Origin: Malania oleifera | Lineage: Eukaryota > Streptophyta > Magnoliopsida > Santalales > Ximeniaceae | DNA length: 64,000 nt | Direction: 5' to 3' | Assembly (NCBI RefSeq): GCF_029873635.1 | Contig: NC_080420.1 | Location: 54,583,457 to 54,647,456 of the forward strand | Part shown: positions 13,190 to 62,940 of the stretch, one piece after another | How the letters are laid out: each line of letters opens with the position of its first letter | Numbering within the stretch: the stretch's first letter is position 1 | Program-made: the position numbers and the translations under genes | The notes under the pieces: model-generated | Database searches by the model: none | What the model was told of the DNA's origin: nothing | Seen by the model: only the letters and a program-made list of their open reading frames with translations

Positions 13190-16070
13190 CAAGTTTCTTA
13201 GAGTGTTTCCCAAGTTTTCATAAAATTTGGGGGCTAAGTAATCAAATTTGGAAATTTTCCCTCGCTATTTTAAATTTGAAAATACGAAGGTCAGTCGACT
13301 GTGACTCATAGGATCTGTCGCCCAATCCTTTATAATTCAGCAAGTTTTCAAACACAAAATGGGGTCCGTCGCTTAAGCTTATGAGGTCAGTCACATGTCT
13401 TTATTTTGTCTATTCAAATTTTAACAACATAAAAATGTCAGTCGCCTGATCTTGTTTTTTGTGTTCACTTTATTCAGCATAAATATGTTAGTTGCCTAAT
13501 TGTCAAGACCTACTCATTTTTCACATATTTTTTTTTTTTATTATCAACACCATAAAATCAATACTACATATCCCACAATCTAGCTTAGCAGGTCACCATC
13601 CACCTGGACCCGTGGGTACCAGGGATATAACAAAACATATAGCAGAAGCCTATGCAGCAGAAAGTATAAAATTATATACGTCTCATCATAATGTACCCAA
13701 TACATACCAGAGTACTATAAACACTAACTCTCAGTATATATACATCCCAAAAATGGAATCTAGGGACAATTCCCACAAAAACCTAACTGTCCCTACCAAA
13801 AACTTACCCTTCGCAGAGGGCAGATAAACAACACTAATTCTGCGGGGCTTTTCCCGCTCTCCTATTCGGGGCTCCTGAAAAATGTATAAGATTTAGGGGT
13901 GAGACGCCTCTCAGTAAGGGAAATAAACTAATACTAGTGTGTGGCAACATGAGTAATTCGTGTTCAACATATATCATATATAACACATTTAGTACTGTTT
14001 CATCAAATCTGGGAAAACATATATATATATATATCAACATGGCAGAACATATTGCATTTTCATAACATATCTCAACTCATATCATAATAATAATAATAAT
14101 ATAAAACAATCCTGGTAGGTTAGCTACTGTTGTCATGTATTACCCCCACATGACTGGGTTGTGTGGCCCGAAGGCGGGACCTGACAATGGTTGGCCGACC
14201 ACTGCCAAGTCGATAGTCTAGTCTGTAGGTCCGATGGGTCTACCCAGACTGGTCCGTACACCAGGGGCAATAATAGCACACTTCTCCAACATAACCACAT
14301 CGACCATCTAATCTCACACCACTCCGTACAGCGGCGTTAACACAGATATCATGATCACGAGGACCATGGACACATAGCAACGGTACCGTGCAAGTGTTAG
14401 CCTAGACCAAGCCAACCAGGTTCTGATATCATATACATATACTAAAATCGTGATATATAAATATCTCATATCATTTATTTTCACATCAATCATATCATTT
14501 CACATATATACGTGTATCATGAAAATCATCGGCCCGTACACCAGTATTACACATTTTAACATAACACGGCCCGTACGCCGGCAAGTCACATAGCTCGGCC
14601 CGTACGCCTGCAAATCACATAGCCCAGCCCATACACTAGCAAATCACATAGCTTAGCCCGTACGCCGGCAAATCACATAGCACGGCCCGTATGCCGGCAA
14701 ATATATCCACATATATATATATAAACATCTCGGCCCGTATGCCAGTTTTCCATCATAAAAATTCATATCATCCACATTCCCATAAAACAACATTTCACAA
14801 CATTTTTACTCATGCCACACAGTAGATTTTCCACATATTCAACATACGATCATTTTTCACAGTATTTTGCAAATATAAAACATATATATATAAACATATA
14901 CATTTTTCGTAAATCAAATGATATATATAAGCATTTTCCAAAACAATACTAGCTTAGTTTATCCCCTTACCTGATTCCTGGAAAGCCCTTAATAAAACAG
15001 CCCCGCACCCGCAGGGTTCCTAACTCAACACCCTGAAAATAAAAAATTCCAAAATTAAAGTTCAGTATTTCGAAGCATACAATATTTTCCTCAACTGCCA
15101 AAAACCCAAATATTGGGTAGAAAGTTTTCACCCAAAAGCATTCAAGTCTAACACCTGAGAGGTTCCCTGACCAATACTCCGAAACTGAAAACCCCTTGTA
15201 TTAAACTTCAACATTTTCATGCGCACAATATTTTTTATGACTAGTGCAAGACCAAGTATAGCTTAAAAAGTCTTACCTCAACTCTGGGATGATTTCCAAC
15301 TAGCTTTCTCCCACGATCCGCTCCAGTAGATTTGGAGAGAACTACGCCAAGAGCGTCGTGGTGACTTCGGATCGTTAATTTGACAAATGGTGGGGCCGGA
15401 AACGTAGAGAGAAGGGAGAGAGAACCGTAGAGAGAGAGAGGAGAGAGAGAAGCTTCGTAAAAAAATGATATTTCTCCCGGATTTTTCATTCTTATAAAAC
15501 AGGATTTCGTCGACGAGCCCGACCTTCGTTGACAAGTCCTTCACAAATTTCGTTGACGAGACCTTGTATTCGTCAACGAAATTCAGGCTGCCTCAGAACC
15601 TCTCTCGGTATTTTCTCGTCGACGAAACCCTGTGCTTGTCGACAAATTCTCTTAAGCCTTCGTCGACGAATACAAGGGATTCGTTGACGAAGCCCTGAAA
15701 CTCCCCCTTTTTGTTTTTCTCTTCCAAAATGCAATGTCGTCGACGAAGTCTACGGCCTCCTTCTGTTCCCGGTTTTCATTTCCCTTTCCTTATTATTTAA
15801 ATTTCATTTTAAATTTGGGTCGTTACATTAATGGTGTCAAGTCAGTCGCTTGATCTTACAATTTTCTAAAAACTTTGATTTTTATCACTTTAATCTTTAA
15901 TCTTGGAAAAACTTAAATGAGACTTTAACATATTTTCTAGGGTTTTCAAAAACAAGTCTCTAAGTCAATAATGGTTCGTAAGAGCTTCAACAATTTATAT
16001 TGAAATTTATGAAGTACTTACATGAGACTTCTTAAAACTTATACATTCTAAATACCAAGTTTTCATGCTT
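13190..16070 (-). mobile_element. Remnant of a copia LTR (H') split by a gypsy solo LTR
   Basis: The two flanks, 13190-13500 and 15828-16070, are pieces of one minus-strand LTR. They carry gtcagtcgcctg/agtcagtcgcttg motifs, and 15900-16060 resembles LTR A at 790-960 (caagtctctaag, gtacttacatgagacttct). The interior, 13501-15827, is the later gypsy insertion. At 16070/16071 this LTR abuts gag coding sequence directly, so pol and the U3 start of this 3' LTR have been deleted. Confidence 0.5.
13501..15827 (-). mobile_element. Ty3/gypsy solo LTR, 2.3 kb
   Basis: On the minus strand it runs from TGTAACGACCCAAATT (15827) to ...GGTCTTGACA (13501). The flanks are ctaat (13496-13500) and ttaat (15828-15832), a 5-bp duplication with one C/T mismatch. 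The conserved gypsy-LTR box gcctctcagtaagggaaataaac is at 13907-13929, a conserved block follows near 14135-14270, and a tandem array of roughly 28-30 bp units (cggcccgtacgccggcaaat) is at 14525-14750. A GA-rich leader lies near 15410-15455, a TATA-like TTTTATAAG (minus) at 15491-15499, and the GTCGAC palindrome cluster at 15500-15750, including a perfect TTCGTCGACGAA at 15659-15670. There is no internal domain. Confidence 0.8.
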
Positions 16071-16913
16071 TTACTTCCATTCTTTGAATTTATCTTGACT
16101 TCTTTCTTCAATACACTTTAGCTTTATTAGATCTTCTCTCTTCGAGTCCAAGATTTTAATGTACTTCATCAAGCACTTTTTATCTGATTTCACATGCCCC
16201 TTTTTATCGCATTTATAACACCGGATTTCTTTCTTCTTCTTGGATTGATTTCGAAATTTCTGACTTGATCCATGTTTGGATTTTCCCTTGCCTCGCTCGT
16301 TATTACCCTTTACCACAAGCCCTTCTCCTTCATCACATATTTTCAATCTTTGATGAAAATTTAGCAAAACACTTGTTACCTCTTCTAGATCAAGAGTTTA
16401 TTTTCCCCACATAAGAGTGGTCACAAGATTTTCATAGGCAAGAGTTGAGGGCAAAGAGTTTAAAAACATCAAAGCTTTGTCATTTTCATCAAACTTAACA
16501 TCAACTCTCATCAAATCACCAATAATTTGATTGAAAGCATTAATGTGTTGATTCAGATTTGATCCTTCAATCATCTTAAGCCAATATAAATGCTACTTAA
16601 GAAAAAGTTTGTTATTAAGGGATTTAGACATGTACCGGTTTTCTAACTTTCGTCAGATTGCCACTAAAAAATCCTCCTCCATCACCCGATAGAGAACTTT
16701 GTCGGCCAAATACAAGCGTATTGTAGATGCGGCCTTTGCTTTCAAATCTACCCATGTTGCCTCATCCATTCCTCCCGGTTGAGTATCAAGTAGAGCCTTG
16801 ACCATCTCTTATTGCACAAGAATGTCCTTCACTCTCCTCTGCCATAAACCAAAATTCCCAATTCCATGAAAGTTGACGATGTCAAATCTTACAGAAGACG
16901 ATCCTAATGTCAT
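16071..16913 (-). pseudogene. Ty1/copia Gag, Tork/Tnt1-like, degenerate
   Basis: The frame opens on the minus strand at an ATG at 16913-16911, about ten bases after the primer-binding site, and reads about 280 residues. The N-terminus contains VNFHGIGNFGLWQRRVKDIL, the pattern of Tnt1-like Gag. The middle contains LNSLPSTLAYENLVTTL, the Gag-polypeptide (UBN2-like) region. The C-terminus is basic and holds a zinc-knuckle-like CYKCDKKGHVKSDKKC in which the last cysteine is two residues out of register with the usual CX2CX4HX4C. At least three in-frame stops (for example after LVQ, near 16811) make it non-functional. It is cut at 16070 by the LTR H' remnant. In an intact element Gag would build the virus-like particle that packages the element RNA. 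Confidence 0.75.
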
Positions 16914-16923
16914 AACAACAATC

Positions 16924-16935
16924 GCTCTGATACCA
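16924..16935 (-). promoter_or_regulatory. Primer-binding site (initiator tRNA-Met) of element H
   Basis: The plus string gctctgatacca reads TGGTATCAGAGC on the minus strand, the canonical copia PBS, six bases from the LTR end at 16942. Confidence 0.9.
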
Positions 16936-16941
16936 ATTTAT

Positions 16942-17738
16942 TGTAATATGGATTGAATAATTAAGATGCACAGTCGAATAAACACAACCAAAACAAAAAT
17001 AACATGATTTACTTGATTCGGCAATGCCTACATCCACGGAAGCAATGACACACAAATTTCACTATAGAAATCACAATGTATGCAATACACTTATCAAATG
17101 ATCACTCTCTCACACAATACATGCCCAAAATGACATATAAAAGAGTCTCTTAGAGGTTTCCCTCCATTTACCCAACCACCCAATGTTCAAATTCAAAAAT
17201 TTTAAAAATTGCTCGCAACCCAGAACTTGTCATCGATGAGAACAGGAGATTCGTCGACGAAGCCAAGAAGACCATTCGTTGACAATAATAGGCTTTCGTC
17301 GACGAGTCCAGAGTTCTAAGATTTTCTTACTCTCGGTATTTCTTGTCAACAATCACAGAATCTTCGTCAACGAGTCTTTGCTATCTTCTCGTCCACGAAT
17401 ACAAGGTTTTCATCAACAATCGTCTGCTGTGTTGCCCATTCATATTTTTCTTTCTTCCTTCTTTGCTTAAGAAAACCAAAGTATAAGAGCCACAAACAAA
17501 AAAAAAAGAATTCCTAAGTCTTCATGTCAAATAGCTTCAATAGTTTGTCCAAACTTTAATCAATTCTTCAATATGCTTCATATCCCTCGTCACTTGTAAC
17601 TTTAATTCTAAACTTCATTCAATCTCTTCAATCACGTTACCTTGTAAGATACTTGATTCCTAAAACTTAACTTAAAAACACACTAAGTAACCTGAATTTG
17701 TTATCATCAAAACGAGATTAAGTTTTGTTAGGCTAACA
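16942..17738 (-). mobile_element. Ty1/copia 5' LTR, 0.8 kb (LTR H)
   Basis: Minus strand, from TGTTAGCCTAACAAAAC (17738) to ...CCATATTACA (16942). A TATA-like TTTTATATG lies near 17134-17145. A GTCGAC cluster lies upstream of it at 17225-17410, with perfect TTCGTCGACGAA at 17250-17261 and TTCGTCGACGAG at 17295-17306. The conserved leader box (cttgattcggcaatgcctacat) is near 17011. This short LTR drives a Tork-like gag yet carries the same palindrome type as the gypsy LTR at 13501-15827. Confidence 0.85.
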
Positions 17739-17814
17739 TTGTACACCTTAAAATTTTTCCTCAAAGATTTTCAAAATATATTAATTGCATAAAAATAATT
17801 ATTATGATATCATA

Positions 17815-22317: not shown

Positions 22318-22367
<50 letters not shown>

Positions 22368-25313: not shown

Positions 25314-25332
25314 AACAAATGCAATACAAGCT

Positions 25333-25546: not shown

Positions 25547-25565
25547 AACAAATGCAATACAAGCT

Positions 25566-32605: not shown

Positions 32606-32979
32606 TGTTGTGTCAAGCACCTCACTTGTGCCAAACATCAATATTACAACTATCGCTATTGAATATATAAGCAAACTGGAGTAATGAAGAAACTAATAAG
32701 CAAAGACAACAATAAAAAACTATACAAGAATTTACGAGATTCGATAAAGAATTACCTACATTTTTGGGCGCCAACGATTAATCCACTATTTCCAAAAAAT
32801 TACAACTTAGTCAAATTTCAAACTACCAATAGTAATTAGAAATACCCTAAAGTGCAAATACAATTTGTAACTCAACAAAGTGGGAGAGCAATTTACAAAT
32901 GGTGAGGGAAACTCCTTATATACCCTCAAGGTAAAGGTTTTAAAAAACTTTCCCATCAATGTGGGACTAAAAATTAACA
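32606..32979 (-). mobile_element. Copia (Tork-type) 3' LTR, probable extent
   Basis: On the minus strand the LTR begins TGTTAATTTTTAGTCCCACATTG at 32979, right after a purine-rich tract (tcaaggtagata) downstream of the RNase H remnant. A TATA box (gggtatataagg, minus) lies near 32914-32925, and the copia leader box (atgtaggtaattctttatcgaatctcgt, minus) near 32739-32766. The end ...CTTGACACAACA at 32606 is my best guess; no second copy in the window confirms it. It carries no GTCGAC cluster and differs from the LTR at 49107-50909. Confidence 0.55.
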
Positions 32980-35398: not shown

Positions 35399-35411
35399 TG
35401 TTAAGGATTTA
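35399..35411. mobile_element. Left stub of the 1.28-kb solo LTR
   Basis: tgttaaggattta, the first bases of the solo LTR whose remainder is at 41934-43203. It ends with attta, the left target-site duplication of the gypsy element that starts at 35412. The flank gatat at 35392-35396 matches gatat at 43204-43208; two extra bases (at) precede the TG. Confidence 0.6.
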
Positions 35412-37706
35412 TGTGACGCCCTGAACTCCCGAAGTGGGGTCCGAGTGCCACGTGTTCCAATCACCTATATCTGGTACCATAATTAACATGCACGCAGTGG
35501 AATATAAATAAATGACCTCAAATAAATGCCAGAGTTCAATACAACAACCCAAAAACAAACACTACAACATTTAGATATCCGTATCCACAACCAGTATTTA
35601 AAACATAACCTAGTACAAATATATCTGTATATATATTCCAATATCTCACAATACCCCAAAAAGAAACCACCAAAAAGAATCCCAGCCTAGGCCTTCAAAC
35701 CCGATCTCCAGAAGAACCTGAAAAGTTGTTAATCCACTAGGGTGAGACATTTCTCAATAAGGGTGGAATAAATTATAACAGTGTGTGACAAATGAGTTTT
35801 AATATTTATATATCAAAATAAATCGCTTCTAATATAACATCAATAAAAAGTGAGAAAATGTATCATTAATAACATCACTGACTTCTAATATCATACACAC
35901 ACATCCAATATGCACAAGTACCTAATTTTTTTATGCAGGTGAAAGTCCCCAAGGATAGGGAAGATTACCCGCCTATACAAGTAGCTTTCTTCTGCTCTAG
36001 TACCTAAAAGATATCTACCAGAGCACTCACTTTACTCGGTAAGCCCTTAAGTGGAGGATTACCTCACCGTCAGTATACACATTTTTATTATTTTAAAGGC
36101 GAAAGTTTCCGAGGATCGAGATGTCTACCCGCCTATACAAGTAGCATCCCTTTGCACTGATAATAAGAAACTACCTAGCAGAGCACTCGCCTTTCTCAGC
36201 AAGCCCTCGGTGATATGTTTACCTCACCGCATGCACACACATGCATTCACAATATGTTATATCATTATTATTATGCTATAATTAAATTTACATGCGCACA
36301 ACACATCCACATAGGAATCATGCATCTCAAACTTCGTCTTCCAATGTCCTCAGTATGTGGCCCACACAGAGCAACTGCGTACATATCAGTACGTGGCCCA
36401 CACAGGCACCTACGTACTTCTTATCTACATATGACTCACACAGGCATCACTACCCACACATGGTACATAACATGGCCCACACAAGCGCCACCATCCACAC
36501 AGGATACATAACATGACCCACATAGGTGCCATTATCCACACAGGATGTAACGTGGCCCACATAGGCACCACTATTCACCAATATCCAATCCCCATGACCT
36601 ACCCATTGTACATTAGTAGAACAAGCTCCTCGACCTGCCAATGCCCTACCCCATATAAATGACAATATGACGAGCTCCTCGACCTGCCAACGTCATATCA
36701 TGATTTATATCTAGGCAATATAACAACCTCCTCATGCCAACGTTATATTGAGATGCATATGAATAACCACACCAGTTATTTCACATTGACGCATCAATGC
36801 AATTCCACATAGGAATCCAAAAGATCAACACATTCCCACATAGTAGTCCAATAGATCAATGCATTTCCACATGCAAATCCAAATACTACAGTAATTCATA
36901 TTCAATTTATTAGGAAAAATTGTTCCCATATCACACGAATTTAATATCATATGCAATTATCCCCAATATGAACCTTAAACAAAATCATCATATTCCAATA
37001 CTCAAGTTGTTCTAAAAAAAATCATATAGATAAATTAAAAATTTTATATGCTCGTAAATAACCAGTTCATCTCAATAAAATATTAATATAATTTTATTCC
37101 CCTTTACCCGATTTCCTGAACCACGCCTGCAGGATGCCCAAAATTATACTCACGACGCTTACCCGAACCCTGATTCAATCAAATCAACCCCAATAAAATA
37201 TTATTTTAACCTTTCCTAGTTTACAATAATTAAATAAAAATTAATTTCTAAATAACTCATTTATCCTAGTTTTGGGGCTATGCCTACAACGACCCCATGA
37301 GAACTCTGCTCCGCTAGACTTGTAAAGAACCATCCCTAGATTCTCTGTCTGATCGCCAATTTGGTTTAAAATTTAAGAAAATTTGAGGTAAAAGTGAGAA
37401 TTTGCCTTACCCCAGGAGATATGCTTACGTCGCTCTTATGACAAATCCACTTCAGTAGAAATGTCGGTGGTGGAGAATGGAGCCAAGTGGTATTCTCCAA
37501 TTTTCGATCGGCCGAATATTTGTTGAGAAATTGAGGAGAGAGGTGAACGGAGGAGTGAGGAAGAAAAAAAAAAAAAAAAAGGTGGACGCAGGCTAGTGTT
37601 GTCTTCGCAGGAAAATAGAAGAAAGAAGAAGTCTTCCTGAAACTTGGACACATAAATTATAATATGCTTATATATCGTATATTATAATATTATTCTTTTA
37701 TATACT

Positions 37707-37746
<40 letters not shown>

Positions 37747-37850
37747 TAATCCTCAAATTTCTTAATTTAATTAATTTTCTTAATATTAATTAATTAATTA
37801 TTATTATTAATAATTTTTTTAAAATTAATATATATTTTTTTGTCGTTACA
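35412..37850 (-). repeat. 3' LTR of the gag-only gypsy element
   Basis: Minus strand from TGTAACGACAAAAAAA (37850) to ...CAGGGCGTCACA (35412). It contains a gypsy-LTR box (ttctcaataagggtgg at 35750), the repeated cell cgaggat...cagagcactcgcc, and a tandem array with gtggcccacacaggcac at 36355-36570 (about six units of roughly 40 bp). A (CA)n tract is near 37721-37746. No GTCGAC cluster is seen. Confidence 0.85.
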
Positions 37851-39422: not shown

Positions 39423-39434
39423 GCTCTGATACCA
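39423..39434 (-). promoter_or_regulatory. Primer-binding site (initiator tRNA-Met) of the gag-only element
   Basis: Plus gctctgatacca equals TGGTATCAGAGC on the minus strand, three bases from the LTR end at 39438. Confidence 0.9.
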
Positions 39435-39437
39435 CAA

Positions 39438-39640
39438 TGTGAACCCTCGAACTCGTCAAGTGGGGCCCAGGTGCCACGTGTTCCAATCACCTATATCTGA
39501 TACCATAATTAACATGCACGCAGCGGAATATAAATAAATGAGCTCAAATAAATGCCAGAATTCTATATAACAACCCAAAAATGAACACCACAACATCCAA
39601 ATATTTGTATCCATAACCAGTATTTAAAACATAGTCCAGT

Positions 39641-39676
<36 letters not shown>

Positions 39677-41928
39677 GTATATATATATATCAGTATCTCA
39701 CAATACCCTATAAAGAAACCACAAAAAATAATCCCAGCTTAGGCCTTCAAACCCGATCTCCAGAAGAATTTGAAAAGTTGTTAATCCACTAAGGTGAGAG
39801 ACTTCTAAGTAAGGATGGAATAAATTATAATAGTGTTTGACAAATGAGTTTTAATATTTATATATCAAAATAAACCACTTCTAATATAACATCAATAACA
39901 ACTGAGAAAATGTATCATTAATAACATCACTGACTTCTAATATCATACACACACATCCAATATGCACAAGTACTTAATTTTTTTATACAAGCGAAAGTGC
40001 CCGAGGATAGGGAAGATTACCCGCCCATACAAGTAGCTTTCCTCTGCTCTAGTATCTAAAAGATACCTACCAGAGCACTCACCTTACTCGATAAGCCCTC
40101 GGGTGGAGGATTACCTCACCGTCAGTATACACATTTTTATTATTTTAAAGGCGAAGGTTTCCGAGGATCGGGATGTCTACCGGCCCACACAAGTAGCATC
40201 CCTTTGCATTGATACCAAGAAACTACCTAGCAGAGCACTCGCCTTTCTCAGCAAGCCCTCGATTGTATGTTTACCTTACCGCATGCACACACATGTATTC
40301 ACAATATGCTATATCATTATTATTATGCTATAATTAAATTCACATGCGCACAACACATCCACACAAGAATCATGCATCTCATACTTCGTCTTCCAATGTC
40401 CTCAGTACGTGGCCCACATAGAGCAACTGTGTACATATCAGTACGTGGCCCACACAGGAACCTATGTACTTCTTATTTACTCGTGGCCCACACAGGCACC
40501 ATTATCCACACAGGGTACATAACATGGCCCACACAGGCGCCACCATCCACACATGATATATAACATGGCCCACACAGGCGCCATTATCCACACATGATAT
40601 AACGTGGCCCACACAAGCACTACTATTCACCAGTATCCAATCCCCATGACCTACCCGTCGTATATCAGTAGAACAAGCTCCTCGACCTGCCAATGTCCTA
40701 CCCCATATAAATGAAAATGTGACGAGCTCCTCGACCTACCAACATCATATCATGATTTATATCTAGGCAATATAACAACCTCCTTATGCCAACATTATAT
40801 TGAGATGCATATGAATAACCACACCACTTATTTCACACAGACGCATCAATGCAATTCCACACAGGAATCCAACAGATCAACACATTCCCACATAGTAGTC
40901 CAACAGATCAATGCATTTCCACATGCAAATCCAAATACTACAGTAATTCATATTCATTTATTAGGAAAAATTGTTCCCATGTCACATGAATTTAATATCA
41001 TATGCAATTATCCCAAATATAAACCTTAAACAAAATCATCATATTCCAATACTCAAGTTGTTGTAAAAAAATCATATAGATAAATAAAAAAATTTTATAT
41101 GCTCATAAATAACCAGGTCATCTCAATAAAATACTGATATAATTTTGTTCCCCTTACCTGATTTCCCAAACCACGCCTGCAGGGTACCCAAAATTATACT
41201 CGCGGCGCTCACTTGAACCCTGATTCAATCAAATCAACCTCAATAAAATATTATTTTAACCTTTCCTAATTTACAATAATTAAATAAAAATTAATTTCTA
41301 AATAACTCATTTATCCTAGTTTTGGGGCTATGCATACAACGACCCCACGAGAAATCTACTCCGCTAGACTTGTAAAGAATTATCCCTAAATTCTCATGGT
41401 GGTGTTTGATCACCCATTTGGCTTAAAATTTAAGAAAAATTGAGGTAAAAGTGAGAATTTTCCTTACCCTAAGAGATATGCCTACGTTACTCTTATGACA
41501 AATCCACTTCAGTAGAAATATCGGTGGCGGAGAATGGAGCCTAGTAGTATTCTCCAATTTTAGATCAGCCGAATAATTGTCGAGGAATTGAGGAGAGAGA
41601 GTGAGGTGGACGGAGGAGTGAGGAAGAAAAAAAAAAGTGGACGTAGGCTAGTGTTGTCTTCACAGGAAAGAAGAAGAAAGAAGAAGTCTTCCTGAAGCTT
41701 GTCCAAGCTTCAGGAAACATCAATTATAATAAACTTATATATATCTTATATTATAATATTATGATTTTATATACTTATATATATATATATATATATATTC
41801 CTTATATATGTATTTAAGCACACATAATCCTCAAATTTCTTAATTTAATTAATTTTCTTAATAATAATAATTAATTATTATTAATAATAATTTTTTTAAA
41901 ATTAATATATATATTTTTTCTCTTTACA
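39438..41928 (-). repeat. 5' LTR of the gag-only gypsy element
   Basis: Minus strand from TGTAAAGAGAAAAAAT (41928) to ...GAGGGTTCACA (39438). It is collinear with the LTR at 35412-37850, including the gtggcccacacaggc array at 40405-40625. It has accumulated many single-base differences and a longer (TA)n tract (39645-39690), so the insertion is not recent. Confidence 0.87.
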
Positions 41929-46642: not shown

Positions 46643-46645
<3 letters not shown>

Positions 46646-47929: not shown

Positions 47930-49049
47930 CATCAGAATCATCAGTAGAATAATAAGAAGATAAAGACCATGATGATAATACCTTATGGTCACTATGTGCC
48001 ATTAGGCACAAATTTGCGGCTTCATTGTCGCTGGACTCGCTATCTGAGCTGTTAGTACTGTGTTTGTTCCAAGAGGTAGCCTTCATTGCCTTCTTCTTCT
48101 TTTTGGAGTCCTTCTTTTGTAATGGGCTTTCTGGCTTGATATAGCCTACTTCATTGCAGTTTTAGCATGTAGGCGGATCTAATTTCTGCTTTCTCTTGCT
48201 CAACTCTCCTTTTTCTAATCTCAAGCTTTAGTATTTTCTGTTAAGTATTTTGTTCTTTTTAAGAAACTTGCCGAACTTTCGGGTCAACAAGGCTATGTCC
48301 TCATTGGAGTCTTGATCACCCTCTTCACTGGAGCTACTCGTCGAGGCTTTGAGGGTTGTGACTTTCTTCGTTATGCTCTTCTCGTTCATCCTCTCATTGA
48401 TTGCCATATCATATGTAATGAGGGATTCATTGAGATCATCCAGTGTCATAGCTTTCAAGTCTCTCCCCTCAACTATGGTAATAACTTTAGGCTCCCAGAT
48501 TGGAGGTAGACCTTTGAGTATTTTCCTAATCATTTCATATGTAGGATAAATCTTAGCATGAGCATTTAAAGAGTTTGTGATGTGCGTGAATCTCGTGTGC
48601 AAGGATTGTATGGATTCACTAGCAGTCATTCTAAATGCTTCATATTCACTCGTAAGCATGTCCGTACGATAATCTTTTACATCTTTAGTACCCTCATATG
48701 TGACCTCTAGTTTATCTCATATCTCCTTAGCTATTTTACAGGCCATAATTCTATTGAACTCATTTGCATCTAAAGCACAGTAGAACGCATTCATGGCACT
48801 AGCATTAACTTGAACTAATTTCATATCATCATCAGTAAAATCATCTTCATCTTTAGGAACACTCTTTCCTTTTACAGTTTTAACCAGTACATAATCTCCC
48901 TTGGAGACAACTCTCCACACTTTCCAATCTAAGTTTTGAAGGAAAATTCTCATCCTTTGTTTTGAAAAGGTGTAGTTAACACTGCCAAAGATTGGAGGCC
49001 ATGTGAATGATTGTCCCTCACCAAAAGGGGATACACCAAGATGAGCCAT
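47930..49049 (-). pseudogene. Ty1/copia Gag, SIRE-like, N-terminal part
   Basis: The ATG at 49049 gives MAHLGVSPFGEGQSFTWPPI, and the frame runs to MACKIAKEI at 48717, where a TGA stands at the position usually occupied by tryptophan (EIWDKLE); this fits a G-to-A change. It continues in the same frame with YRTDMLTSEYEAFRMTASES, the Gag-polypeptide (UBN2) core with LKGLPPIWEPKV, to about 48228. The first zinc knuckle near 48150 is decayed (Cys-stop-Asn-Cys-NEVGYIKPES: His to Tyr, last Cys to Ser). The basic and acidic stretch KKDSKKKKKAMKATSW and SSDSESSDNEAANLCLMAHS follows. At 47929 the frame is cut by the Ogre-type solo LTR and resumes at 43245. Confidence 0.85.
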
Positions 49050-49102: not shown

Positions 49103-49106
49103 AGCG

Positions 49107-50909
49107 TGATTTTTGGTGTATTCCCAAGAGAGGGTGAATTGGATATTTTACAATTTCTAGGTCAAGTATGTCCTATTTTTAAAATCATAGCCAGTATTTC
49201 GCAAACTTAGGATTTTTCTAAGCAATCACAAATACCACATATATGAAGATGTGCAAATATTTGAATCATGCACAACAATCATAATAAGTCAAATATAAAC
49301 ATACAAGTGCTAAAAAATAAAGAGTATAAGCAGAAAGAGTGCAAACACAGTATTTTTACAAGGTTCGGCTGCACCCGCTTACATCCTCGCCTCAAGCCAG
49401 CCCACTTGAGGATTTCACTATACCGCTCCTTTAACTAGGCAGAGCAAAAAACTTGCAACACTCCTTACAGGGTGGAGCCCCGTTTGAGGAATTCACTATA
49501 CCGCTCCCTTAACCGGGCGGAGCAAACCACTTACAACACTCCTTACAGGGTGGAGCCCCCCTTTACACCACTCTTTCAATAGGATGGAGCCCTCCTCTCT
49601 AGGCGATACCCCACCCCTGACACGGCTCACTACTCGAACCGCAGGGATACAAAAGATAAAAAAAATTTTGTGCGTACAAATAAATACTTCTCAAAAAGTG
49701 AAGTTGTACAATATAAATTTATATGCACTCTCACAAGATGAGATTTATGCTCAATAGAGTTCTAGAGTTTCCTCTCTCAAAAATATTTCAAAATAAATGA
49801 GAGGATATGTGAGAAGGGGATCTTTGATCCAAAAAGTGAATTATGCAATAAATGCTTTCAAAGATCTAAAACCCCCAAGTGATTTCTCCAAAAATGATTT
49901 TCAAAAATTAAGTGTTGGAGAAGCTAGGGTTGTGCTCAAAATGATTTTTTCAATGAAAAGAATGAGTGAGCTCTTGAATCTTGTAATAGAAATGCTCAAA
50001 GATTCACTAGCTACAAATGGTTTTTCCAAAAATATTTTTTAAGAAAACAAGTGTAGGAGAAACAATGAATGTGCTCTCAAAAATAATTTGCAATAAAGAG
50101 AATGTGAGAGTAAATGCTTGAAAGATTGAGTAGATGGGTAAATGAATGATTGAGTATGATATATGCTTTTTAAAACTTCTTTAGACGGTGTTGGGCATTG
50201 TATTTATAGGCAAAGACCTCAAGTAGCAATCATGTGACCTTTGCCCATTAAAATAATAATTTATTTTAAATTTTTGTGATCATTGGGAGCTAAAAAATGG
50301 CTAAACCTAAGAGTTCCGGTCGGTTGCGACAAGGTCTAGTTGATTGGCCAAGGGCGATTTTCCATTTCCCCGAGGTTCGGTCGACTAGCCTTCTTGATTC
50401 GGTCTATCAGATCGTCACTGTGTGAAGTCCGGTCGACTGGAGTTTAATGTCTAGTTGACTGGGCCCTCTTTAAAATGCAATTCTAGCCAAGTGTTATATC
50501 CGTTCGACTGGGCACTGAAGGCTGGTCGACTGGCCCTTCTCAAAATATGCATTTTGGTCCTCTTTTGACATCAAAAGTATTTCAAACCTTTTTGTATAAG
50601 TTTATCATTTTAAGAAAAAGGTTTTCTAGGAAAACATTTATTCCTTAATTCAATATATGGTCAATATAGAGTAATAAATCAAATCATGTAATGCATGCAT
50701 TTACAATTCAAACTAGAAACAATACAATTAAAAAAATAGAATTGTCTTCACTTTTTTGCCCTTCAAGTTGCTAGGTGAAATGAACTTTAAGTTCCTTATG
50801 GCTTCCATATGTGTGTGCTGAAATATAAAATTGTTCAAGTACTAAATGCACACATGACATACTTGTGATTTGTCATTATCAAAATGGAATAGGACTCATA
50901 AATTCAAAA
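49107..50909 (-). mobile_element. Ty1/copia 5' LTR of the host element (LTR L)
   Basis: Minus strand from about 50909 (...GAATTTATGAGTCC) to ...ACCAAAAATCA (49107), about 1.8 kb. TATAAATA (minus) lies at 50201-50208. The GTCGAC cluster upstream of it (50310-50540) includes ggttcggtcgactag, ccggtcgactgg and ggtcgactggcc. The leader has a tandem duplication of about 80-95 bp (ttcactataccgctccctt and ccttacagggtggagcccc twice, 49408-49600). The conserved leader box acaaggttcggctgcacccgcttacat is at 49358. It belongs to the same group as LTRs B, B2, E, G and I. Confidence 0.83.
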
Positions 50910-51804: not shown

Positions 51805-51983
51805 TAACCCCTAACTTACACTTTGCTAGCCCTTGAGCAAAGAAAACTAAGGAAAACCTACAAAATAGAAACAAATTCCTAACTACCTCCTCTTTCGTGG
51901 GAAACATGATATCATTTATCGTTCTTAATAAGGCTTTGAACCCCTAGGTGACCCTAGTGGATGAGTTGTAGTGTCGTGAGGGT

Positions 51984-52388: not shown

Positions 52389-54448
52389 TGTAACACCCCT
52401 GAACACTCTATCTATATTATTATTTTTTTCCATTTTACGTAATAAACTCTAATACCACAAACTGTAAACAAAGTCAACCCGGATCCAAAGTGGGGTACTA
52501 GGGATATACCTGGTCATAAATACATATTAACTATGCAGCGGAAAACATGATATACTTGAACCTTAAACACAATACCAAAGTCCTACTAACTTCATAATTA
52601 TAAATATACATCCCCTAAAATCCATAGAAATATTCTAGGGACTCACACAAAATCCCTCTTCCAACTCAGTCACTTACCCTGCAGCTAGGGCAGTACTAAA
52701 ACCTCCTCTATCTCAGAGCTCACTCCACTCATCTATCTGGGTTTCCTAAAATGTTTAAATTTTGGGATGAGACACCTCTTAGTAAAAGGGATAGATTAGC
52801 ATCAGTGTGTGGCATAATAAATTTCTGTATGCATATAAATCATCTACTATATCTGTATAATACTGAAATTCTCCCCTGGATGGATAGTTAGCTAATATAA
52901 TATATTACCCCCACATGATTAGGTTGTGCAGCCCATAGGCGGCACCTACCAATGGTTGGCCTACCATGCTAAGCCAAAACTGACTTGTCTGTAAGTACTA
53001 TTGGTCTGCCTAGCTTGGTCCGGACTACCATGGGGGCACACTACTACACTATCCATTCACTGACACTCTATTTGAGACGTGTGGTGGCACTAATCTGAAC
53101 TAATAGCTACGGTACCATGCTCAGAAACTAAACTAAGCCATTCAAGTTCTGCTATCATATAATACATTTCATAAATAACTGTAATGTAACTATTTCATGG
53201 TTCTGTGTAAAATATGTCATAATAATGTTTCTAAATAAACTATTATAAATATATCTAGTCACGACATCTAGGCCGGCAGAAATATCATGGCATCTGGGTC
53301 GGGCAAAATATCATAACATTTGGGCTGGCTAAATTATCACAGCATCTGGTCCGGCTTAATTATCATGGCATTTGGGCCAACTAAATTATCATGGCATTTG
53401 GCCCAACTGAAATATCACGGCATCTGGGTCAGCTGTCTGGGTAGGCTGAATTATCATAGGATCAGGGCCGACTGAATTATCACAATATATCAAAAATATC
53501 ATAAGTTCTATACTGTTTATAGATTTTCTAAAATTCGTTATAAAAACATTCTTGTTCTGTGTAACCATAAAATAATCTGACATGCTAATATCTGCAATAA
53601 AGTATTTAATCTCATGCCACACAAGTGAGTGCTATTCTATAATATGTTGACTGTCTGGGAAGATTATATTTTTCTGAAAAATAACAATAAATCTGTTTCC
53701 ACGGTTTTCTCAGTTCAAACATTAGATTTCTCAAAAACTTACATTAATTCATATATGCAATTTCTAAATCAAATACTATATTTTAAACGGTAAACTTTAT
53801 GAAAAAACCTGACATAATATATCTCCTTGCCTGTTTCCTAGAACTATGCTTGTAGGGAATCCAATACTATGCCTGTGGTGCCCACACAAGGCCTGTATCC
53901 ATAAACCCTAATTCAATCAAATTAACCCTAGAATAACAACCATTCAACATACCTAGGCCGACATATTACCGATATAGCTAAACTTTTAAAAATAACCTCT
54001 TTACCCTGGCTTTGTAGTGGTGCCTGAAATGCCCGATTCACAAATTTACTTCGGTTAAACTACAAAGAATCGCCGTCGGGATCCCGAAATCACGTTTATC
54101 AGTTGATTCGGGTTGAAATCAGGTGAGAAATCGAGGAGAGAAGGAGGGAAAGCAGCAGCCTTAAGAGAAAGAAAGAAGAAAATTTGATTTTTCCTTTCAG
54201 AATATGAACTGCAGGATTTACATATAAGCTACTGCTAGACAACCGTTGACAGTTTTCCCAAAACCGTCGATGGTTTGGGTTTTAACCCTTCCATTTTTCA
54301 CCGTTTTACCATTACTGGGCTGCGATTACTTAAAAATGTCAACGGTTTTTTGAGCTCCCACAAAATTGTCAACGGTTTGGTCTACACCAAACCATTTTCC
54401 CTCTTTTCCTTTATTTTTCTTATTATTCCTATTTTCTGAGTCTCTACA
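52389..54448 (-). mobile_element. Ty3/gypsy 3' LTR (LTR D), 2.06 kb
   Basis: Minus strand from TGTAGAGACTCAG (54448) to ...GGGGTGTTACA (52389). It has the conserved box acacctcttagtaaaaggg at 52773, the block ttacccccacatgatta...ggttgtgcagccc at 52904, and a tandem array of catctgggtcggctgaattatcatgg-type units at 53255-53490. TATA-like CTTATATGTAAA (minus) is near 54217. The motif cluster at 54235-54395 is of a variant type, accgtcgatggtt and tgtcaacggtt. The polypurine tract ggaggggagga follows at 54449. Confidence 0.82.
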
Positions 54449-55340
54449 TCCTCCCCTCCTTATAAAAATTTCATCCTCGAAAATTGTCATCTATCTATAG
54501 TACCAATCTTAAAGAAAAACGCAAAAATTTTATTAATTACCCTCACTTATGGTGGAGGAATACTGTGGTTACATATATGATTCTAAGAGATTACAATTAC
54601 TAAATCAAATCTTTCCCAAAACAAACAAAAACAGAAAACTATTACATTCAATAAATTAACGTGCACAAAAATCTACTTACATACATGATTTCTTACCTGA
54701 ACCATTACTTTTCCCTGGCTAATGCTGGATCCTACTAAATAAATGTGGGTACTTTTGACACATTTCCTCCTCCAACTCCCACGAAACTTTCTCAACTGCA
54801 TGATTCCTTTAAAGTACTTTCACCAGTGGGATTTTCTTGGTGCGTAATTCTTGCTCTTTATGATTTAAGATTTGAACGAGAACCTCATCATAAGATAAGG
54901 TCTCACCAATATCTAGTGCTTTATAACTTATTATATGAGATGGATCTGGGACGTATTTCTTCAACATGGACAAATGAAATACATCATGGATTTTAGATAG
55001 TGCTAGGGGTAACGCTAACTTGTAGGGAACCAGGCCAACTCTTTTCAATGTCTCAAACGGCCCAATATACCTAGGGCTAAGCATACTCTTTTTCCCAAAT
55101 CTCATTACCTCTTTCATTGGTGCAATTTTCAAGAACACATTATCACCTACATCAAATTCCAGTGCTCATTGACGGGTATTTACATAACTTTTCTATTGTC
55201 TCTAAGCTATTCTAATTCTTTCCTAGATAAGCTTGATTTTATCAGAAGCTCGCTGTACCATTTTTGGCCCCAATATCTGTTTTTCTCCAATTTCATATCA
55301 ATATAACAGAGATCGACATCTCCGACCATATAATTCCTAT
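54449..55340 (-). pseudogene. Ty3/gypsy integrase C-terminal region of element D
   Basis: After the polypurine tract and about 230 bp of non-coding DNA, the minus strand reads VFLKIAPMKEVMRFGKKSML, SPRYIGPFETLKRVG, YKLALPLALSKIHDVFHLSM and [14 protein letters not shown] (55138-54930), the C-terminal DNA-binding and linker region of gypsy integrase, then a tail NHKEQELRTKKIPLVKVL to about 54809 where a chromodomain-like tail would follow. The pattern matches Tekay/Del-type chromoviruses. Upstream, the integrase core is cut at 55340 by insertion of copia LTR I. A Y-to-S or similar change at the motif GKKSMLSPRY is minor; frame breaks upstream of 55138 make it inactive. Confidence 0.8.
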
Positions 55341-57360
55341 TGGCTTTTTGAGTCAGATCTTTGTTTTTATGCTAACAAACACAAGTGTTTCTTATGTGTG
55401 TGTTTTAGTGCATGAATAGGTATTATTCAGGTCACACATAAGATCAAAAGAACATGGAAGCCAAGGCAGCTCTTAAAGCACAAATTTGGCGCATTCCATG
55501 ATGTCAAAAAGCAAAGGAGAAGAAGAAGACATGTTTTGATTTTTATATGCATTTAGGTCTTTATATTTTGGTCTGTAATAAATGCATACATTTTTCTTGA
55601 TATGACTTAATGCTCAGATAGGCCATAGACCTTAGGGTAGACTTGGTTGACTGACCTTGGGTTTTTATACCCTTTAACTAAATTTCCACAAGCTTATTCA
55701 CACAGGGTTGAAAAAGCACAGGGCTAAATAAGACTTAAATGCACATTTTTGAATAGTCTCGGGAGATCGAACCTTGGTTTTATAAATGCCTTGGTTGATC
55801 GAACCAACCTAAAGTCAAACTGTTGACTAAAGGTTGAGTGACCGAACTGTATTTGAACATATTGTTCATAGTCGACCGAAACTTAAAGATGACTTTTTCT
55901 ACCTTCCCTGGTCGCCCGAACTTTTAGTTCAAAATCACCTTGGGCGACCGAACTGTAAGGTTTGGCAAACTGAACCACTTGCCGGGAGATCGAACCTCGA
56001 ACGATTGGAAAATCACCTTGGTCTAGCCAACCAAACTCACACTTGGGTACCCGAACTCAAAAATTCATCTTTTCTCTTTGTGTTTGTTGGGTCGACCAGC
56101 CTTAAGGACCGGACGACTGAAACTATCAGTTTACCAAAAATTAATTGCGGTAATTAGGGTTAAAATTTAGTTAAACTTTTCTAAAATTCCCAATAGGTCC
56201 CCAATGGTCATATTTTTGAGAAAAGCTATAAATACCCATTTCATTTGTTTAATTAGCAACTTTGATTAACTTTAAAATTCTCTAAAATATTTTTTAATCA
56301 AAGTTCCTCCATTTTAATTTTTTTATTTCAAAATCTTTTATGGGGTAAAGTTTTATACTCTCCAAACTCTCTTTATTACTCTTTGGAAAATCATTTGAAA
56401 GAAAGTATTCATTTTTGATTGGGCATTTATTTTATGAAAAGCATTTTACTCTCATAAATTCTTTCATTGTTTTAAAATCATCATTGAGAGTAAATCTTGG
56501 TTTCTCGTGATTACTTTCTTGATAAATATTTTCGGAGAAACTTTTGTTATGCTTTAAGATCTTTGAAGTATTTTATTGCGTACTCTATTTTAAATCAAAG
56601 GTCATATACTTTTCATTTGTGCAAAAATTTCGTTTATATATCATACTCAAAGATTGCACAATTACTTTGAAAATACCCTTACTCTACTGAGCATTAATTT
56701 TATATCATATTAGAGAGTGCATTGTAGATCTTAAACGTGTACATCTTTGCTTGGATTTTTAGAAGCATTATCTTGTACAAAAATGATTTTTATTGTACTG
56801 GTAGGGTTCATCCCTTTGATTGAATTGGGAAGTCTCAGCCCCGTAAATGAGATCGGTTCGTTTCAGTCCGAAAATTGAACTGGGGAGTCTCAGTCCCGTA
56901 AGTGAGACAAGTTAGGCTCAGCCTTGTAATTGAGCTAGGGTTTTCCTTGTCCTGTAAGGAGAAAATGTAAACGGCTTCTGCTTCACTCGTTTAAGTGAGA
57001 AAATTTAGTGTAATCCTTGGGGGGTATGCCCAAGGCGGGGACGTAGACTGGTTTGGCCGAACCTCAATAACAAATATCGTGTATGTCTCTCTCCCTATCT
57101 CATTTACTTTCCACACTTTAATTTCAATATGTGTATGCTTGTTCATATTTTGTTATAACCATCTTGCATGCACACATAATTAATTTAAATGAGATATGCA
57201 GCACACGTGTATGTATGCACACATTGCTCACTTACTTTACATACATGTTTTTTTTCAAATGAGATATGAGATGTGGTGAATCCGCATAATTGTTTAAATT
57301 AGGGAAAAAGTTTTAAATGTCCAATTCACCTCCCCTCTTGGTATCACAACAATTCCAACA
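55341..57360 (+). mobile_element. Ty1/copia 5' LTR (LTR I), 2.02 kb
   Basis: From TGGCTTTTTGAGTC (55341) to ...ACAATTCCAACA (57360), followed by a PBS. The GTCGAC cluster (55640-56125) holds about ten motifs: tagtcgaccgaaac, ggtcgcccgaac, gggcgaccgaac, gggagatcgaacc and others. TATAAATA is at 56227-56234. Leader repeats (aagtctcagccccgtaaatgagat) lie at 56818-56950. The conserved box ggggacgtagactgg...cgaacctcaataa is at 57037-57071. It is close in sequence and layout to LTR E (8979-11127). Confidence 0.86.
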
Positions 57361-58229: not shown

Positions 58230-58273
<44 letters not shown>

Positions 58274-60597: not shown

Positions 60598-60672
<75 letters not shown>

Positions 60673-60799
60673 CATAATTCAATTGCAAGAAATGAAGTTT
60701 CATAGAATATATTTTATTTCTTGCTTGTTTGCTTTATGCTTCCTGACTTGTGCTATCGTGTCTTAAAACTTTTATGTCATGAAATTATCTTAAGGGTGT
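57701..60799 (+). other. Non-coding, element-derived region with purine-tract motifs
   Basis: This stretch of 3.1 kb between the gag remnant of element I and gypsy LTR J has no readable retrotransposon protein and no host exon. Four agggggag-type strings occur on the plus strand: ctaagggggagcagag (58489), cttagggggaggc (59430), atagggggattt (59690) and gatagggggagcattt (60230). In SIRE-type copia elements repeated polypurine-like tracts lie upstream of the 3' LTR, so this may be the 3' non-coding part of element I. A (TA)n tract is at 58240-58268. The 3' LTR itself is not seen. Confidence 0.4.
60602..60662. repeat. Compound microsatellite (CA)n(TA)n
   Basis: About 17 CA units followed by about 13 TA units without interruption. 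Confidence 0.95.
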
Positions 60800-62544
60800 T
60801 GTAACGACCTGCCTAATTTACCACACATCAACCATATTAATTATAATTAATTTAAAACATAGTAACGTCAACCTGCACCCATGGGTAACGGGGAAACAAC
60901 TATCATATACAGCGGAAACCTAAGAAGAAGTAAATATAAATTCCATTCACCAAACCATAAGGTACATTATACCAGAGTTACCTACATTCCACCATAATAC
61001 TGTATATGTACAATCCTCAAAACATCAAAAGATAAAACTAGGATATTACATCAAAAACCTACTAACCCTAGTTCAAAAACTCACCCTCCTAGTGGGATAG
61101 TAATACTACCTCAACGGCGGGCTTGGTTCGCCTGTCTTTCTGGGTTCCCTGAAATGGTTTAAACTGGGGTGAGACACCTCTCAGTAAGGGAAATAAACTA
61201 AATACAGTTGTGTGGCAACATGAATATTTAGTGCTATAATAAATATGCAGTACATGTCACATACTTGAAAACACGGATAATATCATAACTGAGTAGGCAT
61301 ATAATTTCATAATTTTACTAAATCATACTATATCTAACTGTTCATAAAATCATCTAATATAACTAGTAATTTTGAAATTTACCCAGGATGAATAGCTAGT
61401 TGATGTCATGTATTACACCCCATGATAGGTTGTGCAGCCTGAAGGTGGGACCCGACAATGGCTGGACGACCATTGTTGAGTCAAAAAGGTCTGTAAGTAT
61501 GATGGACCTGCCACACCCTGGTCTGGACTGTCAGGTGGACTTCTACAACTCTACACTGAAAGCCACATCGACTATCCATCTCCCACCCCTCTACTAGCAG
61601 GGGCAGTTAGCACAAATCTGAACTGAAATGAACTGTATAACTACGGTACTGTGCTCTTGATAACTAATATGAATTATCATCCAGGTTATGATAACATATA
61701 ATACATGATAATATATTGTTTGAACATAAATAGATTGATAGCATTTTCTATTTTTGTAATAACATAAATAATTACGGCCTTGCGCCAATTACATTCATAA
61801 CTGCGGCCTTGCGCCGAAAACATGCATAATCCACAAGCTTGCACCGGCTATCAATCACGGCCTTGCGCCAAACATTTCATACATACCGATCTGAATAAAT
61901 GTACTATTTATCATGTATTTTGAAATCATAGTTTATTGTATTATCCTATTATTTCTGAAAATCACTGAACATGCTTTTTTTGTAAAATTAACTTAACATA
62001 ATAAAATATGTGTAAAATAATATTCATGCCACACAATACTAAATACAATCATAAATTCTATTCTAAAATCATATTTCCTGACATTTCATACTAAAAATAC
62101 ATATTCCTGTGTAATAGCAGTATTTTCCCAAATATACATTTCTACAAATATGCTTATATATAGTACATGCTTTATAAACATAAATTTTCTATTAAATAAT
62201 AATAATTTTTATGGAAAATTACTGTTTTAGTTTATTCCCTTACCTGACTACTAAAAAGCCCCTACAGTGTCTAGTCCTACAACTGCAAACACCCTAAAAA
62301 CAATATCTCCCTGAACAAAACTTCAGTATTTCTTCGAGTACTATATTTCCTACAACTGTGGGAAAGACAAATACAAAATAAAAAACCTTACCCTGAATTT
62401 GGGATGGAGTTCAAGTCAGCCCCACAAATGATCCACTCTAGCAGACTTGAAGAGAACTTTCGCAGGAGTGTCGTGGTGGCCTTGGATCGTCGAACCTGCA
62501 AGAATCTGGCCCAGAGTCTTAGAGAAAAGGGGGAAGGGACGTAC

Positions 62545-62610
<66 letters not shown>

Positions 62611-62940
62611 TTCTCTGCGTGGTTTCTACAGAAAAATCGAGTTTAGGCTATTTATACACCTGCACTCGTTGACGAGCCATGTCACTTCATCGACGAGGCC
62701 ACAATGGGATTTCATCATCAAACACTTACTCCTTATCGACAAAATTCAGAACTGAAAGATAGCCTCTTGGTATCTTCTCGTCGACGAGACACGTGTCACA
62801 CTCGATGATCTCATTAAGCATGTTTGTTGACGAACGTGCTGTGTTCGTAGAAGAGACCCTTGTTGAATCCTTAAATTCAATTTCATTTCTCTCTCATTTC
62901 CCTTATTATTTAATTATTATAATTCCTCTGGGTCTCTAAA
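60800..62940 (-). mobile_element. Ty3/gypsy 3' LTR (LTR J), 2.14 kb
   Basis: It runs on the minus strand from about 62940 (TTTAGAGACCC, where TGTAGAGACC would be expected) to ...GGTCGTTACA (60800). The box acacctctcagtaagggaaataaac is at 61171-61195, the conserved block gttgtgcagcctgaaggtgggacc at 61429, and a short array of acggccttgcgcc units at 61774-61870. The (GA)n leader tract is at 62547-62607. TATAAATA (minus) is at 62649-62656, with GTCGAC palindromes directly upstream at 62660-62860, including a perfect 14-bp TCTCGTCGACGAGA at 62776-62789. Confidence 0.83.
62547..62607. repeat. (GA)n microsatellite in the leader of LTR J
   Basis: About 30 uninterrupted GA units, just downstream of the LTR TATA box in the transcription sense. 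Confidence 0.95.

What the first reader, a model, noticed from the sequence alone, without database searches (positions are those of the whole stretch)
15500..62860. GTCGAC-centred palindrome clusters upstream of the TATA box in copia and gypsy LTRs alike
Short palindromes or near-palindromes centred on GTCGAC, spaced tens of bases apart, occur in at least a dozen LTRs here, always in U3 upstream of the TATA box. In copia LTRs they have the form (T)CGGTCGACCGA(A) and variants: 425-700, 6070-6460, 7175-7420, 9385-9710, 12745-12925, 50310-50540, 55640-56125. In the 0.8-kb Tork-like LTR (17225-17410) and the gypsy LTRs (15500-15750, 62660-62860) the form is TTCGTCGACGAA or TCTCGTCGACGAGA; LTR D has accgtcgatggtt (54235-54395). 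Perfect examples are 6430-6441, 15659-15670, 17250-17261 and 62776-62789. These lineages do not share LTR ancestry at that level, so the motif has either spread between elements or been acquired repeatedly. A host factor binding site multiplied as an enhancer, or a silencing target, would both fit. The gag-only element, the Tork LTR at 32606 and LTR F lack it.
Basis: partly seen in the sequence, partly recalled or inferred. Interest (0 to 1): 0.78.

Follow-up and report, generated by a model that had tools for sequence, protein, structure and literature searches.

The report
Shared palindrome module in retrotransposon promoters
In this tree genome, two unrelated classes of jumping genes carry the same roughly 190-base promoter module, built of regularly spaced mirror-image DNA words upstream of the transcription start signal, which suggests that a control switch passed from one class of mobile element to the other.

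Summary
GTCGAC occurs 20 times in the window against 2.7 expected. The genome (Malania oleifera) holds 37,861 TTCGTCGACGAA against 67 for the reversed control, and 17,197 TCGGTCGACCGA against 47.

It is not one motif. (1) The copia form GGTCGACC is in print: CGGTCGACCG is the repeated motif of a grape Sirevirus. (2) The TCGTCGACGA form is a composite module: up to eight or more palindromes, best spaced 21-25-20-46-20-25-21 bp, with a non-palindromic block (sense ATACCGAGAG) four bases after one unit. In 15 of 31 arrays a TATA box lies exactly 9 bp from the last unit. A copia family carries the same spacing and block, in three copies not chosen for the block (window, L032, L033), two beside copia gag. 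Shared spacing plus block means one homologous module, so it spread between superfamilies. (3) Gypsy LTR D has a third form.

Best reading: a promoter-proximal enhancer of host-factor sites, captured by recombination. Homology is well supported; function and mechanism of transfer are inferred. Repeated U3 palindromes are known; sharing of a phased module between gypsy and copia was not found in the papers searched.

The parts
15507..15746 (-). TCGTCGACGA module in gypsy LTR A, nine units
   Evidence: units and spacing; LTR 72% identical over 537 bp to the L005 LTR, which adjoins an integrase piece
15602..15611 (-). conserved block ATACCGAGAG, gypsy LTR A
15487..15496 (-). TATA box of gypsy LTR A, 10 bp from the last unit
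15817..15827 (-). probable 5' end of gypsy LTR A (TGTAACGACCC)
   Evidence: reading as an LTR end is recalled knowledge
62666..62854 (-). TCGTCGACGA module in gypsy LTR B
62763..62773 (-). block of gypsy LTR B with one mismatch
62646..62656 (-). TATA box of gypsy LTR B, 9 bp from the last unit
62925..62953 (-). polypurine tract and 5' end of gypsy LTR B
63359..63742 (-). gypsy integrase C-terminal piece (SH3_Tf2-1) upstream of LTR B
   Evidence: E 4.1e-22
17230..17420 (-). TCGTCGACGA module in a copia LTR, spacing 21-25-21-47-20-25-21
17330..17339 (-). block ATACCGAGAG in the copia LTR, 3 bases after the fourth unit
17132..17142 (-). TATA-like TTTTATATG of the copia LTR, about 90 bp from the array
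   Evidence: missed by the scan
16924..16935 (-). primer binding site TGGTATCAGAGC of the copia element
17720..17738 (-). probable 5' end of the copia LTR
   Evidence: the stretch 17641-17738 is 75-78% identical to LTRs at window 1025-1121, L034, L013
54242..54376 (-). third form, AAACCGTCGACGGTTT-like sites, gypsy LTR D
54812..55165 (-). gypsy integrase C-terminal piece (SH3_Tf2-1) upstream of LTR D
   Evidence: E 3.9e-22
9392..9681 (+). GGTCGACC-form array in a copia LTR, TATA at 9807
50378..50532 (-). GGTCGACC-form array in a copia LTR, TATA at 50203; the gag at 48231-48716 lies downstream
55869..56119 (+). GGTCGACC-form array, TATA at 56226
6082..6440 (-). GGTCGACC-form array, TATA at 5958
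541..694 (-). decayed GGTCGACC-form array in an LTR whose 5' stretch resembles that of the copia LTR at 17.7 kb
7182..7402 (.). decayed GGTCGACC-form array
12749..12831 (.). decayed GGTCGACC-form array

Best explanation
The TCGTCGACGA clusters are copies of one composite U3 module of about 190 bp: typically up to eight 10-12 bp palindromes, in the fullest copies spaced about 21-25-20-46-20-25-21 bp (nearly mirror-symmetric), with a conserved non-palindromic block in the central interval. Shown: the module is shared, in register, by Ty3/gypsy LTRs and one Ty1/copia LTR family, and in gypsy-type LTRs it usually ends 9 bp from the TATA box. Inferred: it is a promoter-proximal enhancer whose palindromes bind a dimeric host factor, in pairs two helical turns apart. 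Inferred: the copia family took over the array, not the gypsy TATA box, by recombination or by a nested insertion that became part of its U3. The GGTCGACC arrays are a separate module that matches the Sirevirus repeated motif, with the same core hexamer and probably the same kind of role.
For: Spacing: 120 of 134 intervals in 19-22, 23-25 or 43-48 bp. TATA 9-19 bp from the last unit in 20 of 31 arrays, exactly 9 bp in 15. Block exactly 4 bases after a unit in 23 of 31. Anchored on the block alone: 14 of 31 occurrences have a unit with at most two mismatches at that place, the other 17 have six to nine mismatches, about 0.1 expected. Copia window copy 21-25-21-47-20-25-21 against gypsy-type L004 21-25-19-45-21-25-21 and L002 21-25-19-47-19-24-21; block in register in 0, 0 and 2 of 5,000 spacer shuffles for window, L032 and L033. 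Copia gag beside the array in L032, homologous over 1,040 bp with the window copy; gypsy integrase pieces beside arrays in the window, L031 and L005. Block plus unit 2,849 times in the genome, control 0; copia spacer plus block 47, control 0. 137 of 172 changes in units are CpG transitions, 12 on the four non-CpG positions.
Against: No expression or binding data. L020, a copia copy, has lost the block register (3,489 of 5,000 shuffles as good), and spacer similarity with units masked is weak for L032 and L020 (summed score reached by 10 and 110 of 500 shuffles; best single score by 19, 142 and 42 of 500 for window, L032, L020). The window copia copy has the block 3, not 4, bases from the unit and so is a miss. 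In the copia LTR the TATA box lies about 90 bp away, not 9. Eight of 31 arrays had no TATA by my scan and three lay at 54-122 bp. L004 and L002 are the best matches among eight gypsy-type modules listed; others differ by missing or added units. Arrays also fold strongly as RNA, which fits a silencing reading too.
Confidence: 0.6

Rival explanations
1. Silencing target: the arrays persist mainly because their RNA folds and feeds small-RNA-directed methylation, not because they drive transcription.
For: Folding z-scores -5.7 and -5.9 for two gypsy-type arrays, -2.9 for the copia array, -2.6 for a GGTCGACC array. In maize, small RNAs were reported in excess over Sirevirus palindrome clusters (the 2016 paper is cited in PMC10760457, passages). 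The mutation pattern fits methylated CpGs.
Against: A silencing target gives the element no reason to keep the palindromes at a fixed distance from TATA or to preserve order and spacing. It does not exclude both roles.
Confidence: 0.14
2. Nested debris: the copia array is a gypsy LTR fragment inserted into copia copies, with no role in the copia element.
For: Nesting occurs: L038 has the copia LTR next to a gypsy-like reverse-transcriptase frame (read by eye), and L001 joins a gypsy-type array to a GGTCGACC array at the TATA box.
Against: Nine copia copies carry the array at the same place in the LTR (window, L020, L032, L033, L035-L039; the last five were chosen by the block), and copia spacer plus block occurs 47 times genome-wide, control 0. 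It may still have begun as one insertion.
Confidence: 0.08
3. Convergence: copia and gypsy LTRs gained the palindromes independently because both use the same host factor.
For: The GGTCGACC and AACCGTCGACGGTT forms show that different LTRs can carry different GTCGAC-centred palindromes.
Against: Within the TCGTCGACGA form the spacing vector and a non-palindromic block are shared in register.
Confidence: 0.07
4. Neutral tandem growth: the arrays are by-products of slippage in a 45-bp unit and have no function.
For: Spacings 21+24 repeat as 45, and L015 has three exact 24-bp tandem copies.
Against: Neutral growth would not fix the distance to TATA, nor keep the non-CpG positions (12 of 172 changes; units were chosen by similarity, so this is a lenient test).
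Confidence: 0.08

Closest known systems
Repeated palindromic motifs (RM) of Sirevirus LTRs, Bousios et al. 2010, PMC2829016 (passages and section 9)
   Same: Clustered palindromes upstream of TATA in the LTR; the grape RM CGGTCGACCG is the copia form of this window (6431-6440 exact).
   Different: Described as Sirevirus-specific with a CGG-CCG core (except Tnd-1). The TCGTCGACGA form lacks CGG-CCG, lies in gypsy LTRs and in a copia family, has a fixed spacing vector and a non-palindromic block.
Maize Sirevirus palindromes linked to small RNAs (Bousios 2016; not held; known through PMC10760457 passages)
   Same: Palindrome clusters in the LTR cis region, strong RNA structure.
   Different: Other sequence (CACCGGACNNNGTCCGGTG). 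PMC10760457 reports that maize palindrome also in Helitrons; small RNAs were not tested here.
Repeated U3 activator boxes of plant copia elements such as Tnt1 and Tto1 (recalled, no call)
   Same: Short repeated sites upstream of TATA that drive LTR transcription.
   Different: Known from single element families, other sequences.

Membership tests
Sirevirus RM (Bousios 2010), applied to the GGTCGACC arrays | palindrome with CGG-CCG core, repeated | tested here: met
   CGGTCGACCG exact at 6431-6440; decayed copies around it; TCGGTCGACCGA 17,197 in the genome against 47 for the control
Sirevirus RM (Bousios 2010), applied to the GGTCGACC arrays | cluster upstream of TATA in the LTR | tested here: inconclusive
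   TATA downstream in 4 of 7 regions
Sirevirus RM (Bousios 2010), applied to the GGTCGACC arrays | element is a Sirevirus | tested here: inconclusive
   copia gag PF14223 at 48231-48716, E 7.2e-11; the Sirevirus lineage is recalled from the gag sequence, no tree was made
Sirevirus RM (Bousios 2010), applied to the TCGTCGACGA module | CGG-CCG core | tested here: not met
   core is TCGTCGACGA in 56 of 100 GTCGAC sites of the sample
Sirevirus RM (Bousios 2010), applied to the TCGTCGACGA module | restricted to Sireviruses | tested here: not met
   gypsy integrase pieces adjoin arrays in the window, L031, L005
Sirevirus RM (Bousios 2010), applied to the TCGTCGACGA module | additional copies upstream of an ENV gene | not tested
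   no ENV-like gene was searched for
Transcriptional enhancer | raises transcription from the linked promoter through bound factors | not testable with these tools
   no expression or binding data
Homologous module shared by copia and gypsy | same order, spacing and non-palindromic sequence in both | tested here: met
   spacers alone weaker

The most novel reading that the evidence does not exclude
A promoter module moved between Ty3/gypsy and Ty1/copia elements inside one plant lineage, and LTRs of at least three kinds in this genome have converged on one host factor that reads GTCGAC-centred palindromes. Many of the genome's retrotransposons would then share a single regulatory switch, passed on by module capture.
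Probability: 0.33. Interest if true: 0.85.

Novelty: new variant of a known kind. Interest (0 to 1): 0.68.

Why it matters
Copia and gypsy LTRs are not expected to share sequence. A phased multi-site module common to both would show that retrotransposon control regions can be exchanged across superfamilies, could explain joint amplification of unrelated families under one host signal, and offers thousands of natural variants (37,861 perfect 12-mers; 2,849 block-plus-unit sites) for finding the host factor and the silencing pathway that read the site.

Tried and rejected
One motif for all LTRs: rejected, spacing and flanks differ between the forms. Chance: rejected. Base composition: rejected, since the reversed control strings are themselves palindromes of equal composition and contain no CpG, while the real words contain CpGs that should make them rarer. 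Integration-target reading: PMC6911290 reports only a weak preference for palindromes (passages), which would not fix the distance to TATA. Spread to other plants: a peptide read across an array (L015:3352-3792) was searched in the protein collection, since such frames can be annotated by accident elsewhere; 492 candidates, none at E up to 10. This is weak evidence, the peptide being repetitive. L001, a gypsy-type array joined to a GGTCGACC array, was seen once; its copy number was not obtained. The genome count of AACCGTCGACGGTT was not obtained. No lead to a host factor for GTCGAC came from one literature search.

Sampling cautions: 60 places were drawn and 20 fetched, within assumed minimum contig lengths, so chromosome ends are under-sampled. 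The 200 kb hold 24 perfect TTCGTCGACGAA where the genome count predicts about 5, so the sample is rich in arrays by chance or the genome count is low; I do not scale the sample to the genome. L001-L008 were brought in by the motif itself; L035-L039 were chosen by the block or by copia spacer plus block; neither set is independent for those features. In one search the 17 comparison modules are called gypsy-type from their array and TATA layout; only some adjoin gypsy domains. L036 was scored on the wrong strand. The orientation of L008 and L019:3255-3443 is unsure because they lack the block.
Full report
WHERE IT IS. The window lies at G000:C4:54583457-54647456 of a genome of 1,494,336,490 bases in 510 contigs. 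A piece of a gene on the sampled stretch L022 (C7) is 100% identical over 94% of the query to KAN1 of Malania oleifera, on a contig of 111,994,049 bases, the length of C7 here. The published assembly has about 1.5 Gb, 13 pseudo-chromosomes, Copia 28.9% and Gypsy 30.0% (PMC10199050, passages). So this is the garlic-fruit tree.

THE OBSERVATION. GTCGAC occurs 20 times in the window; 100 shuffles give a mean of 2.69 and at most 8. The four cited perfect palindromes are exact. Unit positions are listed. Genome-wide, TTCGTCGACGAA occurs 37,861 times and its reversed string 67 times; TCGGTCGACCGA 17,197 and 47 times. The reversed strings are palindromes of equal composition without CpG. That sample is rich relative to the genome count (24 perfect 12-mers, about 5 predicted), so I do not scale it up.

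THREE FORMS. Intervals between successive TCGTCGACGA units (up to two mismatches, up to 130 bp) in the sample fall at 19-22 bp in 68, 23-25 bp in 27 and 43-48 bp in 25 of 134; 14 lie elsewhere. For CGGTCGACCG units in the sample plus the window, 7 of 28 intervals fall in those classes, and 32, 40 and 72 bp recur. Gypsy LTR D (54242-54376) has AAACCGTCGACGGTTT-like sites, seen also in L027 and L033.

THE MODULE. Thirty-one arrays with four or more TCGTCGACGA units were collected: 19 in 14 of the 20 random stretches, three in the window, eight in loci brought in by the motif search and one in a locus brought in by the rbcL search. In 20 of 31 a TATA box follows the last unit at 9-19 bp, in 15 at exactly 9 bp; three lie at 54, 89 and 122 bp; eight had none by my scan. 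A non-palindromic block (sense ATACCGAGAG) follows a unit end by exactly four bases in 23 of 31 arrays; the others show 3, 5 and 1 bases, three other values and two none. To test this without choosing arrays first, I searched the window and the 20 random stretches for the block alone with up to one mismatch: 31 occurrences. In 14 the ten bases that end four bases before it are TCGTCGACGA with at most two mismatches; in the other 17 they have six to nine mismatches. About 0.1 would be expected by chance. The window copia copy is one of the 17, because its gap is three bases. Block plus unit as one 24-base pattern occurs 2,849 times in the genome, its reverse never.

SUPERFAMILIES. Gypsy: integrase pieces adjoin array-bearing LTRs in the window (63359-63742, SH3_Tf2-1, E 4.1e-22), L031 (SH3_Tf2-1, E 4.5e-25) and L005 (rve, E 4.6e-6 but 27.3 bits against Pfam's cut-off of 32.6); a frame near the L002 array gave no family. 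LTR A of the window is 72% identical to the L005 LTR over 537 bp. Copia: the element at 16.1-17.7 kb has, on the minus strand, LTR, PBS TGGTATCAGAGC and gag in order; 16349-17339 aligns at 72% over 1,040 bp with L032, gag and array included, and L032:1606-2034 is copia gag, PF14223, E 4.5e-26. L020 and L033 hold further copies of this LTR with the array. Two places predicted from a block variant (L035, L036) and three of the 47 places with copia spacer plus block (L037-L039) are also this LTR; L035 also matches an internal part of L032 at 76% over 338 bp. At E up to 1e-5 the copia LTR matches the gypsy-type loci held only inside the array; the best is 72% over 149 bp to L021, E 1.6e-9.

SAME MODULE IN BOTH. 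With up to three mismatches per unit the window copia array reads 21-25-21-47-20-25-21. Among eight gypsy-type modules listed beside it, L004 reads 21-25-19-45-21-25-21 and L002 21-25-19-47-19-24-21, with the block after the fourth unit in each; the other six have missing or added units. The vector is nearly mirror-symmetric. Shuffling copia spacers 5,000 times with units kept in place matched the block in register 0 times for the window, 0 for L032 and 2 for L033; for L020 the register is lost (3,489 of 5,000 as good); L036 was scored on the wrong strand; L035 (1 of 5,000) and L037-L039 (0 each) were chosen by the block and are not independent. With all units masked, summed similarity of copia spacers to 17 gypsy-type modules was reached by 0 of 500 shuffles for the window copy, 10 for L032 and 110 for L020; the best single score by 19, 142 and 42. 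I take this as homology of the whole module: strong by spacing and block, weaker by spacers alone.

TRACES OF EXCHANGE. The 5' stretch of the copia LTR (17641-17738) is 75-78% identical to that of LTRs at window 1025-1121, L034 and L013, which carry the GGTCGACC form: related LTRs with different arrays. L001 joins a gypsy-type array, at its TATA box, to a GGTCGACC array; it is a single case and may be a deletion between neighbours.

DECAY. Of 157 units (up to three mismatches, in arrays of the random sample) 54 are perfect; 137 of 172 changes are CpG transitions and 12 fall on the four non-CpG positions. Units were chosen by similarity, so overall conservation is overstated, but the split by position is fair. 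It fits DNA methylated in the germ line (inference).

HOW IT MOST LIKELY WORKS. Fixed distance to TATA, pairs of palindromes 20-21 bp (two helical turns) apart and preserved order point to a bank of sites for a dimeric host factor just upstream of the promoter (inference). Because U3 is also transcribed at the 3' end of element RNA, the array can fold: z-scores -5.7 and -5.9 for two gypsy-type arrays, -2.9 for the copia array, -2.6 for a GGTCGACC array. The same sites may both drive the element and expose it to small RNAs, a balance proposed for maize (PMC10760457, passages). The copia family has the array but its own TATA box about 90 bp away, as expected if the array alone was captured (inference). 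Gypsy as donor is a guess from the wider spread of the module there.

WHAT IS KNOWN. Bousios et al. 2010 (PMC2829016; passages and section 9) describe palindromic repeated motifs upstream of TATA in 13 Sireviruses, call them Sirevirus-specific, and list CGGTCGACCG for a grape element. The copia form here matches that. Searches of the held library for GTCGAC with palindromes and LTR retrotransposons (none), for the strings themselves (67 papers hold at least one, 20 listed, none of those about LTRs by title), for palindromes with TATA and gypsy (3), for palindromic U3 regions (4), for modular exchange (3) and for copia-gypsy sharing (5) showed, in titles and abstracts plus the passages read, no report of such a module in gypsy LTRs or of its sharing. 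The library lacks most subscription journals, and the 2016 maize paper is not held.

Noticed in passing
L009, L010, L011 and other places: The genome holds many nuclear copies or fragments of the plastid rbcL gene, 34 matches, several with stops.
   Followed up: no
L034:4337-5459 and window 1-1125: An LTR-bearing stretch is repeated in the same orientation about 3.7 kb apart at 92% identity, with copia-like frames before each copy: a tandem duplication.
   Followed up: partly
window 13285-13500 and 15838-15860: A further repeated word, GTCAGTCGCCTGA-like, in what looks like another LTR split by the gypsy LTR A.
   Followed up: no
window 35411-37850 and 39437-41928: A direct repeat of 2.5 kb at 89% identity with a PBS-like word at 39423-39434, without the palindrome arrays.
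   Followed up: no
L015:3440-3540: Three exact 24-bp tandem copies of unit plus spacer, a snapshot of array growth.
   Followed up: no
L006, L010, L029, L033 and window 62790: ACACGTG/G-box-like words (CACGTG) often sit between palindromes in gypsy-type arrays; enrichment was not tested.
   Followed up: no
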